Below, piece by piece: positions 33,572 to 39,240 of a stretch of DNA of 39,279 nucleotides. This stretch comes from an uncultured Thermoanaerobaculum sp. (lineage in GTDB: Bacteria > Acidobacteriota > Thermoanaerobaculia > Thermoanaerobaculales > Thermoanaerobaculaceae): the NCBI GenBank assembly GCA_937934115.1, contig CALHAH010000037.1, forward strand, positions 1-39,279. The letters are read 5' to 3'. Every line of letters starts with the position of its first letter. Position 1 is the first letter of the stretch. Made by a program: the position numbers and the translations under genes. The notes under the pieces were generated by a model. That model was given only the letters and a program-made list of their open reading frames with translations, did not search any database and was not told the origin of the DNA.

Positions 33572-34186
33572 ATGGAGGAGCTACGCGTGCGTGAACTTCC
33601 AGCTTGGTTGACAAAGGGGTTTGCAAACTTCCAGCGGCGTTTTGTCTCCGGCGAGGATCCAAGCTTCCGGCACGCCGTGCATTTCGGTCAAAGCCCCAAG
33701 GCCATGGTCGTGGCGTGCGCCGACTCACGGGTAGATCCAGCCCTGCTCTTTTCAGCTCGCCCCGGCGAGCTCTTCGTGGTCCGTAACGTAGCCGCCCTCA
33801 TCCCACCTCCGGAGGAGGATTCGGGTTTTCACGGTGTCAGTGCAGCGCTGGAGTTCGGGGTGGTGACCCTACAGGTCCCACAGGTGCTGGTGGTTGGCCA
33901 TAGCCTTTGCGGTGGTGTTCGCGGTTTTATGGGACAGGTTGGCACTGATCCCAAGTCCTACCTGGGGCGGTGGCTGGCACTCCTGCGCCCGTTACAGGAG
34001 GAGTTTCCGGAGTTGGGGGCGTGTGAGGAAAAGGAAGTGGGTCAAGCCGCCGTAAAGTTGTCGCTAAGGCGCTTGGCTTCCTTCCCTTTCGTGGCGGAGA
34101 AGCTAGCCTCGGGCAAACTGGCGGCCTTCGGACTTTACTTTCAGCTGGATCCCCCAAACCTGGAGCTGGTGGAAGCCATCCCGTGA
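33572..34186 (+). CDS. Beta-type carbonic anhydrase
   Basis: 204 residues. The zinc ligands and catalytic pair of beta-carbonic anhydrases are present: [11 protein letters not shown] (Cys about 48, Asp 50, Arg 52) and [13 protein letters not shown] (His about 110, Cys 113). [12 protein letters not shown] and [18 protein letters not shown] are typical flanks. The enzyme interconverts CO2 and bicarbonate. The first ATG (33572) overlaps a GGAGGAG sequence that serves equally well as ribosome-binding site for GTG 33587, so the protein may be five residues shorter. Confidence 0.93.
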
Positions 34187-34411
34187 AGGCAAAGGGTTCA
34201 AAAGCCAAACGGCCACAGGTTTTTCCCCAAGCGCTTGACAAACCCCAAAAACCTGTCAAGCTAAGCCTGCCTCGCCTACAAGCGATGCCCGCTTCAAAAT
34301 CGGTTGGAGCGCGTAGAACACCGCGGGTGGTAAAGCGCACCCGGGGTTTTGGAGAAGGCTGGGAGGCCCCAGCAAGCAGCACGGCCGAGGAAGGCCGGCA
34401 AGGAGAGCAGC
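34187..34411 (+). promoter_or_regulatory. Leader region of the cold-shock gene with nested inverted repeats
   Basis: The 225 bases before csp hold two perfect, mutually exclusive inverted repeats. ACAGGTTTTT (34215-34224) pairs with AAAAACCTGT (34247-34256), and GCTTGACA (34233-34240) pairs with TGTCAAGC (34254-34261). The right arms overlap and the left arm of the second lies in the loop of the first, so only one can form at a time. TTGACA within the second repeat could also be a -35 box, but no -10 fits at normal spacing. The region may be a structured 5' UTR, a double operator, or part of the carbonic anhydrase 3' end. Confidence 0.45.
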
Positions 34412-34612
34412 ATGGCTAAAGGTACGGTGAAGTGGTTTAACGAGTCTAAAGGTTTTGGTTTTATTACCCAGGAGAGCGGCGAGGACGTGTTCATTCACTA
34501 CTCAGCAATCCAGGGTGACGGGTTCCGCACGTTGCGCGAGGGTGCACGGGTGGAGTTCGACGTGGTACGCGGTCCCAAGGGGCTGCAGGCGGCAAACGCC
34601 CGCGTCATCTGA
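34412..34612 (+). CDS. csp: Cold-shock domain protein
   Basis: 66 residues, a single cold-shock domain. [18 protein letters not shown] contains RNP1 (KGFGFI) and DVFIHYSAI contains RNP2. The end is [13 protein letters not shown]. It binds single-stranded RNA/DNA as an RNA chaperone. The start at 34412 follows a GGAG Shine-Dalgarno; a longer frame from 34349 is not supported. It is followed by a strong terminator and preceded by a leader with competing hairpins. Confidence 0.96.
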
Positions 34613-34728: not shown

Positions 34729-35438
34729 CTGGAGCTCAAAGTTCGGGACGTGGCTAAGCTCCTGGGGGTCTGCGAAAAGACCATGTACCGCTGGCTTGCC
34801 GAAGGCAAGATGCCGGCCTACCGTTTGCACAAACAGCACCGGTCCTTTGAAGCTCAGGTTTTGGCCTGGGCGCAAGCGCTGCGGGTGCCAGTCGCTCCGG
34901 AAGCCCTCACCAAAGCCTCATCGGGCCAGGGAGTATTGCTGGCGCAAGTACCTCAGCGGGGAGGAATCCTCTACCGCCTCCCGGGGGACGATAAGACCGC
35001 GGTCTTGCGGGAGCTGGTAGCAACCATGCCGCTACCTCCGGGTCTTGACCGCGAGTTTCTCTACCAAGGGCGCGTAGCGCGGCACACCATGGCTTCCACC
35101 AGCATCGGCAACGGAATTGCCCTGCCCCACCCTCGCACCCCAATCCTGGCGGTGGGGGCACCGCCCCAGGTAACGTTGGCCTTTCTCCAACATCCGGTGG
35201 ATTTAGGGCCTTGGACGGCCAGCCTGTTTTTGCCCTCTTTGCCATTTTGATGCCCTCCTCGGCAACCCACCTCAAGCTTTTGGCACAGCTTGCCTTCGCC
35301 CTCAAAGACAACGATTTCCCAGCGCTCATCCAGGCAATCGCCGGCAGGCGTCGCACGCTCACAAACGCCGCGAAAAGCGATAGGATCCTCCTGGATTGGT
35401 CGCAAGCCTCAAAAGCTCACTTACGGCGCAAGCGCTAA
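34729..35438 (+). pseudogene. HTH + PTS EIIA-like protein gene, frameshifted
   Basis: The N-terminal part (to about residue 45) is an excisionase-type helix-turn-helix: VAKLLGVCEKTMYRWLAEGK followed by MPAYRL. The C-terminal part is a PTS EIIA (nitrogen-type) domain with the phospho-acceptor His in IGNGIALPHPR. This fusion occurs in Acidobacteria and Deltaproteobacteria as a regulator. At 35206-35208 the frame is lost. Adding one G to the GGG run restores continuity into the frame beginning ALDGQPVFALFAILMP, which carries the rest of the EIIA fold to the stop at 35438. The start is unclear: GTG 34750 is in frame, and the conserved sequence extends a few codons upstream to CTG 34729. Either a true pseudogene or a one-base sequence error. 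Confidence 0.7.
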
Positions 35439-35451
35439 GCGTGGGGCGTAA

Positions 35452-36341
35452 CTGGTAGAAACCGTAGCTGGAGACAGCACCGTTGCTCACACCCAAGCCT
35501 ACTGCCAAGCACTGGAGGCCCTTTCAGGCGTACAGGTGCCTCCGCGGGCAGCCGCCCTACGGGCCGTGGCGTGGGAGCTGGAAAGGCTCGCCAACCATGG
35601 GGGAGATCTGGCTGCGTTGGCACAAGACGTGGCCTTCCTCCCCACCGCGTCGTACTGCGGCCGGCTGCGCGGCGAGTTACTGAACCTCACCGCCGAGCTG
35701 GGCGGTAACCGCTTTGGACGCGGACTGCTGCAACCTGGCGGTACGCGGTACGACGTCACGGCGCAAACACGAACCACCATCCACCGGCGCCTCACCGGCT
35801 TACGGCGGGAACTCCAGGCTGCTGTGGCGCTGATGTGGGATTCGCCCTCGGTGCTGGGTTGGTTTGAGGAAACCGGCCAACTCTTTGGCGAAGTAGCTCG
35901 GGATTTGGGAGTTCTGGGAGTGACTGCCCGCGCCAGTGGCTTGAGGGTGGACAGCCGCTCCCAATTTCCCGCGGGAAGGTACCGCTTTTTGCATGTGCCG
36001 GTGCTCACCAGCGGCTTCGGGGATGTCTTCGCCCGGGCCTGGGTTCGCTGGTTAGAGGTGCCACACTCGCTCACACTCGTGGAGAAACTCCTCCAAAGCC
36101 TCCCCGGCGGGGTAATCTTTGCTCCGTTGGGACCTCCCGAGGCTTCTTCCTTGGCCGTGGGGTTGGTAAAAGGCTTTCGCGGGGAGGTCTGCCATGTGGC
36201 CATCACCGACAAACGGGGGAACTGTTGGCTTACACGACCGCCGACCCCTCGCTCCACAACTGGCCGGCCCTAGCCTACGTGATGCGGGGCCAGGATACCT
36301 CTGAGTTCCCCTTGTGCAATAAAAGCTTTACCTTGTCGTAA
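35452..36341 (+). pseudogene. Ehr-type/complex I-like large subunit (hydrogenase-4 G-like), truncated and frameshifted
   Basis: From 35452 the frame reads VETVAGDSTVAHTQAYCQAL, then ALRAVAWELERLANHGGD, SGLRVDSRSQFPAG, FGDVFARAWVRWLEVPHSL, characteristic of HyfG/NuoD-type large subunits. Where [NiFe] enzymes have the L1 motif R-x-C-G-x-C the sequence is ETVAGDST, and the C-terminal Cys pair is missing too (NKSFTLS then stop), so it is the Ni-free, Ehr- or NuoD-like type. The expected 100 or so N-terminal residues are missing. Around 36215-36219 the frame is lost in a run of five G; adding one G links it to ELLAYTTADPSLHNWPAL and the end at 36341. Together with the next two entries it is a broken three-gene cluster. 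Confidence 0.72.
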
Positions 36342-36367
36342 TGTGGCTTTGATTTGTAGGAGGCGGC

Positions 36368-36692
36368 GTGTGGTCCGTTCTTAAATCTCGAGGCACGCAA
36401 ACCGCCAAGCCCTACCCCTACCCCGCAAAGCTCCCTGTTTTGCTTGGGCGTTTTGGTGGCCTGCCCGTCTTGCATTCCAGCCGCTGCCAAACCGGCTGCA
36501 GGGCTTGTGTGGAAATTTGCCCACCCACGCCATCCCAGTGGAGCCGTGGCGCTTAGATATGGGGCGCTGTCTGTTCTGCGGTCAATGCCAGGACGCGTGC
36601 CCCCCGCAGGCCTTAACCTTTTCACTCACGAGTTCCGCCTGGCCACCTGCCGACGGCAAGACCTCATCATTAGCGCAGAAAAGCAGTTTTAG
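36368..36692 (+). pseudogene. Ferredoxin-like subunit (hydrogenase-4 H / NuoI-like), two frameshifts
   Basis: An intact AGGAGG precedes GTG 36368. The protein starts MWSVLKSRGTQTAKPYPYP, the usual N-terminus of HyfH-type iron-sulfur subunits. The first cluster motif reads CQTGCRACVEICP, with one residue more than usual between the first two Cys. After that the frame breaks at a CCC run near 36531; adding one C joins THAIPVEPWRLDMG and the second cluster CLFCGQCQDACP. A second break in a TTTT run near 36619 is repaired by one T, leading to THEFRLATCRRQDLIISAEK and a stop at 36692. The repaired length, about 109 residues, is close to that of short HyfH-like subunits. Confidence 0.72.
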
Positions 36693-36719
36693 CTTGCACA
36701 AGCGCTAGAGGTAGAGCTT

Positions 36720-37141
36720 GTGCGCGTTTTTGGTGGCTCCTTGCGCTTGCGGCGGGTGAGGGCGGGTGGTTGCAACGCGTGGCAAGCCGATGCCAACGTC
36801 CTGGAAACAGCTACCTTCGATACGGCTCCCTTTGGCGTGCAGTTCGTGGTGTCACCCCTCCACGCCGATGGTCTTCTGGTCACAAAGCCCGTCACCGAAA
36901 ACCTGCGCGAGGCCTTGCTTGCACCCTACAAGGCGGTGCCCCACCCAAGAATCGTCATAGCTTCGGGGGCTTGTGCCACTTCCCTTGGGCCCTTCGCCGA
37001 ATTTTCCGCAGTTCACAACGGCGTGGATAGGTTTTTACCCGTGGACCTCTACGTTCCTCGTTGTCCGCCCAGCCTTGGACGCTTTTGGATGGCATTCTTC
37101 GTCTCTTGCGCCGTGTGCATGGCGAGTCCCAAAGCCCCTAA
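36720..37141 (+). pseudogene. Small subunit (hydrogenase-4 I / NuoB-like), frameshifted, one cluster Cys lost
   Basis: Starting at GTG 36720 (GAGGT upstream) the protein reads MRVFGGSLRLRRVRAGGCNAW, then FGVQFVVSPLHADGLLVTKP, IVIASGACATSLGPF and PVDLYVPRCPP. These match the electron-transferring small subunit that holds the proximal [4Fe-4S] cluster. But the C-x2-C pair G-S-C-N-x-C is GGCNAW here (second Cys to Trp), SPRHAD is SPLHAD, and PGCPP is PRCPP. Each differs from the consensus by one base. Near 37068-37070 the frame is lost in a CCC run; adding one C gives TLLDGILRLLRRVHGESQSP and a stop at 37139-37141. Substitutions at invariant sites argue for real decay. Confidence 0.7.
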
Positions 37142-37245: not shown

Positions 37246-37650
37246 TCACCCGTCAGAGCGCGATAGCTTCCTCACGAGGTCGGCGTCAGCCGGTGGCATC
37301 GGCAGCCTCCCCAGTTCCTCTGCTTTGAACCAAGCCACCTCTTGCCCTTGCAAGCCGCGAGGATTCCCGTGGGCAATTTCGGCATCGTAAAAGAGCAACA
37401 ACACATCCTTACCGGGCTCTCGGTGCCAAGCAAAGGTGCGAGGACCCAAAATGTTCACCCGCACCCCCAACTCCTCTTCAAGCTCGCGAACCAGCGCTGC
37501 CTCGGGTAGCTCCCCATCCTCTACCCCCCCACCAGGAAACTCCCAAAGGCCACCGAGGTGCGCTTGGGGTAAACGACGGGCCAGGAGGTAGCGGCCCTCC
37601 TGGCCCCGAATAACTGCTGCTACTACCAAGCGAAAGCTAGTGCTTGCCAC
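37246..37650 (-). CDS. NUDIX hydrolase (MutT-like)
   Basis: 134 residues. The Nudix box G-x5-E-x7-REL-x-EE-x-G is complete around residues 41-63 (GGVEDGELPEAALVRELEEE). RRLPQAHLGGLWEFPGG before it is characteristic of MutT-type 8-oxo-dGTP diphosphatases, which clean the nucleotide pool. The start GTG 37650 overlaps the stop of the PpiC-like gene upstream, so coupling is likely. Substrate specificity is inferred only. It is convergent with the broken hydrogenase-like cluster. Confidence 0.88.
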   Translation of the reverse strand: MASTSFRLVVAAVIRGQEGRYLLARRLPQAHLGGLWEFPGGGVEDGELPEAALVRELEEELGVRVNILGPRTFAWHREPGKDVLLLFYDAEIAHGNPRGLQGQEVAWFKAEELGRLPMPPADADLVRKLSRSDG

Positions 37651-39027: not shown

Positions 39028-39240
39028 CCTCGCCCCTGTGGGGCCAACGCGAACAAATGTGGGGCCGCCGGTTATCTGACGCGGGGGGCACGGCCACGCT
39101 CCTCCCACCCACCCGTGGCCGGCTCAGCCCCCCGCACCCCAACGCTTCGCCCAGCAAAGCCGGGCCTCGCTCCTGTGGGGCCAACGCGAACAAATGTGGG
39201 GCCGCCGCGAGAAAAGTGTGGGGCCGCCGCTCCGCGGCGG
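39028..39240. repeat. Degenerate 21-22 bp tandem units and a 43-bp direct repeat
   Basis: The block 39028-39070 recurs at 39165-39207 with one mismatch (43 bp; a perfect 36-bp core at 39035-39070 and 39172-39207). Inside each, TGTGGGGCC recurs every 21-22 bases, followed by A/G-C-GCGA-A-like spacers; a further copy starts near 39218. In total five GTGGGGCC copies lie in about 190 bases. They sit beside the transposase remnant and may be transposase-binding sites at an IS end (IS21-type elements carry repeated end motifs), or an unrelated interspersed repeat. Confidence 0.6.

What the first reader, a model, noticed from the sequence alone, without database searches (positions are those of the whole stretch)
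35452..37141. Broken Ehr-type (Ni-free hydrogenase-related) subunit cluster
The order large subunit - ferredoxin - small subunit matches hyfGHI, with intact ribosome-binding sites between genes. The large subunit has GDST in place of the first Ni-binding Cys motif and lacks the C-terminal Cys pair, so it belongs to the Ehr/NuoD-like type. All three genes are disrupted and the first has lost its N-terminus. The membrane subunits expected for an ion-pumping complex are not in the window. This shows a respiratory-type module in loss.
Basis: partly seen in the sequence, partly recalled or inferred. Interest (0 to 1): 0.6.

Follow-up and report, generated by a model that had tools for sequence, protein, structure and literature searches.

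The report
Dead remnant of a respiratory-type complex
This stretch is the wreck of an operon for a membrane-bound, nickel-free relative of hydrogenases (an 'Ehr' complex) that a sister species still carries whole at the same place; it is a clear snapshot of gene loss in a known kind of system, and it shows that a sugar-phosphotransferase-type regulator gene belongs to that operon.

Summary
The window (whole contig G000:C37, probably Thermoanaerobaculum) carries a pseudogenised Ehr (Ech/Hyf-hydrogenase-related, Ni-free) operon. Same-genus genome G001 has it intact between the same neighbours (CspA; MutT and SurA): HTH+PTS-EIIA regulator, HyfB, HyfC, HyfE, HyfF, large subunit, then ferredoxin and small subunit FUSED in one gene. 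In the window the regulator is frameshifted, about 5.6 kb (membrane genes plus the N-half of the large subunit) is gone, and the rest carries frameshifts, two nonsense codons and a lost Fe-S ligand (Cys to Trp). Substitution-type damage and accelerated change rule out a pure sequencing artefact. No HyfB or HyfC orthologue exists elsewhere in the assembly. A third species of the genus lacks the operon at that place, giving intact, remnant and absent states. Beyond the finding: the HTH-EIIA gene is a near-constant partner of this Ehr type (59 of 63 testable loci across many phyla; 27 of 29 genomes in the class); I found no report of this in the papers I could search. The remnant itself is ordinary gene loss.

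The parts
34729..35400 (+). Pseudogene of the HTH (excisionase/MerR-like) + PTS EIIA(Ntr/Fru) regulator; start codon ATG->CTG, -1 frameshift at ~35201; C-terminal ~20 codons replaced after ~35349
   Evidence: PF12728 7.7e-10, PF00359 split over two frames; 77% identical to intact G001:C16 gene; start codon
35350..35457 (.). Deletion scar: ~108 bp with no detectable similarity to the G001 operon; replaces ~5.6 kb (hyfB, hyfC, hyfE, hyfF and the N-half of the large subunit)
   Evidence: local alignment scores at or below shuffles; no repeats at the junction; spacing taken from G007:C239
35458..36359 (+). C-terminal ~60% of the Ehr large subunit (NuoD/HyfG-like, Ni-free): ETVAGDST motif; -1 frameshift at 36215; nonsense TAA 36339-36341; original stop TAG 36357-36359
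   Evidence: PF00346; 73% identity to G001 orthologue; DNA alignment; motif alignment with HycE/HyfG
36358..36363 (+). Shine-Dalgarno AGGAGG before the Fd-small gene, preserved
   Evidence: sequence; same position in G001
36368..37141 (+). Pseudogene of the FUSED ferredoxin (2x[4Fe4S]) - small subunit (NuoB/HyfI-like): indels at 36522, 36621-36622, 36722/36728, 37069; nonsense TAG 36690-36692; N2-type ligand Cys->Trp at 36780-36782
   Evidence: intact 257-aa ORF in G001 and relatives; frame pieces; indels; ligand alignment
34349..34612 (+). CspA-type cold-shock gene, intact left flank, syntenic with G001:C16
   Evidence: 13 of 13 codon changes vs G001 synonymous
37246..37650 (-). MutT/Nudix gene, intact right flank, syntenic with G001:C29 and G002:C10
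37637..38641 (-). SurA/parvulin gene, intact right flank (91% identical to G001, 76% to G002)

Best explanation
The locus is the remnant of a once-complete Ehr operon (HTH-EIIA regulator, HyfB, HyfC, HyfE, HyfF, large subunit, ferredoxin-small fusion). Shown: the intact operon in the sister species at the same place, a large internal deletion, point and frameshift damage in every remaining gene, and no replacement membrane arm in the genome. Inferred: when intact, electrons from a soluble donor (ferredoxin, or a formate dehydrogenase as suggested for other Ehr complexes) pass through the two ferredoxin clusters to the small-subunit cluster at the large-subunit interface; the large subunit cannot make H2 because the Ni ligands are gone, so the acceptor is probably a quinone or similar as in complex I; the redox step drives ion pumping by the HyfB/HyfF antiporter-like subunits; and the HTH-EIIA protein, whose phosphorylatable His is conserved, probably sets operon expression by PTS phosphorylation state. 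In this lineage the complex became dispensable, a deletion removed the pump and the remainder is drifting.
For: Intact orthologous operon with the same flanks in G001, split over two contigs. Same neighbours without the operon in G002. No HyfB orthologue (best 30%, complex I subunits) and no HyfC in G000. At residues conserved in seven other species, 10 changed only in the window against 1 only in G001, sign p = 0.012; tree branch 0.34 against 0.13. Amino-acid-changing codons vs G001: 76 of 298 (large) and 67 of 253 (Fd-small) with one new stop each, against 27 of 331 (SurA) and 0 of 66 (CspA). Cys-to-Trp at a position that is Cys in all 68 small subunits where the motif was found. Ehr membership: Ni ligands C,C,C of HycE/HyfG replaced by A,S,L; GD[ST][ST] type motif in 68 of 80 loci.
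Against: Read coverage could not be inspected; the genome is a 52-contig assembly. About 58% of differences are still at codon position 3, so constraint was lost only recently or part of the signal is older. The -1/+1 pair at 36722/36728 and small compensated indels in the large subunit may be alignment choices. Nothing tests the electron donor, acceptor or pumped ion.
Confidence: 0.93

Rival explanations
1. Assembly or sequencing artefact: the operon is intact in the organism, and the breaks and the deletion come from base-calling and mis-joining.
For: Several breaks are single-base indels in short homopolymers (e.g. 35201, 36215, 36522); the region lies 2-4 kb from the contig end; no coverage data.
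Against: Two nonsense substitutions, a Cys-to-Trp ligand loss, a start-codon change and faster amino-acid change are not indel errors; flanking genes CspA, MutT and SurA are intact and the rest of the contig tiles with long ORFs; HyfB and HyfC are absent from the whole 96.7%-complete assembly.
Confidence: 0.05
2. The pieces are still used: the large-subunit fragment or the Fd-small pieces are expressed as a reduced, membrane-free redox protein, or rescued by recoding.
For: Preserved Shine-Dalgarno before GTG 36368; both ferredoxin 4Cys motifs are still readable; the net frame over Fd-small returns to the original.
Against: Four separate frame breaks plus a TAG in one gene, a lost N2-type ligand, and no constraint signal matching the neighbours; no membrane partner in the genome.
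Confidence: 0.02
3. Remnant of a true [NiFe] group-4 hydrogenase (Hyf/Hyc/Ech) or of a second complex I, not of an Ehr complex.
For: Generic models score NuoD/NuoB highest; the nearest solved structure is HycE of formate hydrogenlyase (7z0s, E 2e-61).
Against: Ni-ligand motifs are absent in the window fragment and in the intact relatives; the tree puts it in a clade apart from HycE/HyfG and from the two NuoD of its own genome; all NuoD hits are far below the curated cut-offs.
Confidence: 0.02

Closest known systems
Ehr (Ech-hydrogenase-related) complex of Geobacter sulfurreducens, GSU0739-0745 (subunits named in the papers read: EhrA-1, EhrA-2, EhrB, EhrC, EhrL, EhrS)
   Same: Hyf-like membrane subunits plus a large and a small subunit; Geobacter and Geomonas homologues sit in the same clade; described as lacking the NiFe centre (PMC13194489) and as abundant in formate-grown cells (PMC7894505)
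   Different: Here the operon is deleted and broken; the intact G001 version has one HyfB-like subunit directly after the regulator, while many relatives, Geomonas included, appear to have two
Ehr complexes of Margulisbacteria, Saganbacteria and Melainabacteria (PMC6349859)
   Same: Group-4-like complex lacking Ni/Fe ligands with Mrp-like subunits
   Different: nuoE/F-fdhA partner genes next to this locus were not looked for; the main text of PMC6349859 does not mention PTS
E. coli hydrogenase 4 (hyfA-R) and formate hydrogenlyase (hyc)
   Same: Gene order B-C-E-F-G-H-I; window large-subunit fragment 27-28% identical to HyfG/HycE, G001 small subunit 38% to HyfI/HycG
   Different: Ni ligands absent, HyfH and HyfI fused, no hyfD counterpart seen in G001, regulator is HTH-EIIA and not an FhlA-type activator
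EIIA(Ntr)/PtsN
   Same: PTS_EIIA_2 domain with the active-site His (GIALPH)
   Different: Fused behind an excisionase/MerR-like helix-turn-helix; scores well under the PtsN cut-off (69.5 against 138.7)

Membership tests
Ehr complex (Ni-free group-4-hydrogenase-related) | Large subunit homologous to HyfG/NuoD without the Ni-binding Cys motifs | tested here: met
Ehr complex (Ni-free group-4-hydrogenase-related) | Small subunit with [4Fe4S] ligands and a two-cluster ferredoxin | tested here: met
   Homology met and both ferredoxin motifs readable; in the window one small-subunit ligand is lost (Cys->Trp), intact in G001
Ehr complex (Ni-free group-4-hydrogenase-related) | Antiporter-like and NuoH-like membrane subunits in the operon | tested here: not met
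   Absent in the window and in the assembly; present in the intact relative G001. The window is therefore a remnant, not a working member
Ehr complex (Ni-free group-4-hydrogenase-related) | Phylogenetic placement with known Ehr | tested here: met
   100/96 clade with Geobacter and Geomonas homologues; G. sulfurreducens EhrL itself not included
[NiFe] hydrogenase group 4 (Hyf/Hyc/Ech) | RxCGxC and DPCxxC Ni ligands | tested here: not met
Respiratory complex I (NuoD/NuoB) | Score above the curated NuoD equivalog cut-offs | tested here: not met
   178 bits against 360 for the intact G001 protein; G000 has two other NuoD-type genes elsewhere
Pseudogene | Disrupting mutations against an intact orthologue plus relaxed constraint | tested here: met
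PtsN / EIIA(Ntr) | EIIA_2 domain with phosphorylatable His | tested here: met
   phosphorylation itself not testable
PtsN / EIIA(Ntr) | Stand-alone PtsN equivalog score | tested here: not met
   69.5 bits against cut-off 138.7

The most novel reading that the evidence does not exclude
Ehr complexes of this type form a conserved module with a dedicated HTH-EIIA protein, so that a PTS phosphorelay (PEP/pyruvate status) controls a Ni-free, ion-pumping redox complex in many bacterial phyla; the window lineage lost regulator and complex together.
Probability: 0.55. Interest if true: 0.55.

Novelty: new member of a known kind. Interest (0 to 1): 0.3.

Why it matters
It documents, inside one genus, the intact, decaying and absent states of an Ehr operon, so the complex is dispensable in this lineage. 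It also gives a testable regulator for a class of complexes whose physiological role is unknown: HTH-EIIA presence tracks Ehr presence in 27 of 29 genomes of the class.

Tried and rejected
Looking for homology or repeats in the 108-bp scar (none above shuffles). The idea that the membrane genes moved elsewhere in the genome (only complex I type antiporters). The idea that ferredoxin and small subunit are separate genes (rejected: fused in all 75 testable loci). Rfam: no RNA family in the window. Literature searches for an EIIA link to Ehr or hydrogenase-4 found nothing relevant; the library lacks most subscription papers, among them the original Ehr descriptions, so absence of a report is not shown. 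Structure prediction was not run because sequence families and the catalytic His already settle the EIIA call.

Full report
WHERE. The window is the complete contig G000:C37 of a 2.42-Mb, 96.7% complete assembly. A genome of the same family, G009, has a contig of the same length and matching content as a record named Thermoanaerobaculaceae bacterium Prado014, so the window belongs to Thermoanaerobaculaceae; the genus Thermoanaerobaculum is an inference from genome size and placement.

WHAT IS THERE. On the + strand: CspA (34349-34612), an HTH + PTS-EIIA gene (34729-~35400), a large-subunit fragment (35458-36359), and a ferredoxin-small-subunit gene (36368-37141), then MutT and SurA on the - strand. 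The same-genus genome G001 has this arrangement intact but split by a contig break: C16 carries CspA, HTH-EIIA (229 aa), HyfB (643 aa), HyfC/NuoH-like (303 aa) and the start of HyfE; C29 carries the end of HyfF, the large subunit (500 aa, NuoC-like N-domain plus NuoD-like domain), the ferredoxin-small fusion (257 aa), MutT, SurA, MazG and then a complex I operon. DNA identity is 76% over 3.3 kb on the right and 83% over 1.1 kb on the left.

WHAT IS BROKEN. Against G001: EIIA start ATG to CTG (34729) and a -1 indel at 35201; similarity stops at 35349 and resumes at about 35455, in the middle of the large subunit; the intervening 108 bp resemble nothing in the G001 operon. In G007, where the operon lies on one contig, the same two points are about 5.7 kb apart, so about 5.6 kb is missing. 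The large subunit then has a -1 indel at 36215 and TAA at 36339-36341. The Fd-small gene has indels at 36522, 36621-36622, 36722/36728 and 37069, TAG at 36690-36692, and TGG for the Cys of the GGCNAC motif at 36780-36782.

IS IT REAL DECAY. Indels alone could be sequencing errors, but nonsense codons, the ligand change and the start-codon change are substitutions. At 110 columns identical in seven other species, the window alone differs at 10 and G001 alone at 1 (sign p = 0.012). The window branch is 0.34 against 0.13 for G001. Amino-acid-changing codons make up 76/298 in the large subunit and 67/253 in Fd-small, against 27/331 in SurA and 0/66 in CspA; MutT (30/155, measured with a start extended upstream of its true one) is not a clean control. 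The third-position share is still 0.58-0.59, so the loss is recent relative to the split from G001.

IS THE MEMBRANE ARM ELSEWHERE. Five Proton_antipo_M genes exist in G000, in two clusters. The G001 HyfB finds only these, at 28-32% identity, and the G001 HyfC finds nothing. In G002 the NuoG-F-E-A, MazG, SurA, MutT block is followed by an unrelated membrane gene; G002 has no orthologue of the large subunit, of HTH-EIIA, of HyfB or of HyfC. Whether G002 lost the operon or its ancestor never had it there is not decided.

FAMILY. Aligned with E. coli HycE and HyfG, RVCGIC corresponds to TVAGDS and DPCYSC to FNLSYC in G001, so three of four Ni ligands are gone and one Cys position remains in intact relatives. 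A GD[STA][STA]-type motif is found in 68 and NKSFxLSY in all 80 of the closest named loci, which include Acidobacteria, Planctomycetes, Lentisphaerae, Kiritimatiellota, Spirochaetes, Deltaproteobacteria and Geobacteraceae. This is the Ehr kind, described for G. sulfurreducens as a complex without the NiFe centre (PMC13194489), abundant in formate-grown cells (PMC7894505), and for other phyla in PMC6349859.

THE OVERLOOKED PARTNER. In 59 of 63 of those loci with enough upstream sequence an HTH-EIIA gene is present, 57 on the same strand, often abutting HyfB. In 120 genomes of the class, 27 have both the Ehr large subunit and HTH-EIIA, 2 only the former, 2 only the latter and 89 neither (Fisher p = 3e-22, not corrected for relatedness; families f1, f5, f6, f7, f10, f14 are represented; the two lists were drawn by score, leaving out weaker hits that are Ni-type hydrogenases or EIIA without HTH). 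The His of the EIIA active site is invariant in 29 aligned sequences, and PTS enzyme I is present in all 18 genomes checked, with or without Ehr. A regulatory role is inferred, not shown.

JUDGEMENT. The finding is a well-supported pseudogene locus of a known kind of complex. It is not surprising as such. The conserved HTH-EIIA linkage is the part worth following.

Noticed in passing
L090-L169 (upstream of the Ehr large subunit): An HTH + PTS-EIIA gene is a near-constant first gene of Ehr operons across phyla; no report of it was found in the searchable papers.
   Followed up: yes
window 33572-34186: The carbonic anhydrase gene is inverted relative to G001:C16 while the genes on both sides keep their orientation.
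   Followed up: no
window 39037-39207: A repeat TGTGGGGCCAACGCGAACAAATGTGGGGCCGCCG occurs twice (39037 and 39174) at the contig end and may explain why the assembly stops there.
   Followed up: no
L054 (G001:C29): The complex I operon next to the Ehr locus reads nuoA-E-F-G-H-J-K-L without nuoB, C, D or I among its genes.
   Followed up: no
L091, L095, L124, L132, L135 and others: Between HTH-EIIA and the best HyfB match there is often a ~2-kb gap that probably holds a second HyfB-like antiporter gene; G001 has only one.
   Followed up: partly
L134 (Methylococcaceae isolate 8), L149 (Rhodopirellula bin.212): Ehr large and Fd-small genes without membrane genes directly upstream (L134: none found; L149: on the opposite strand).
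   Followed up: no
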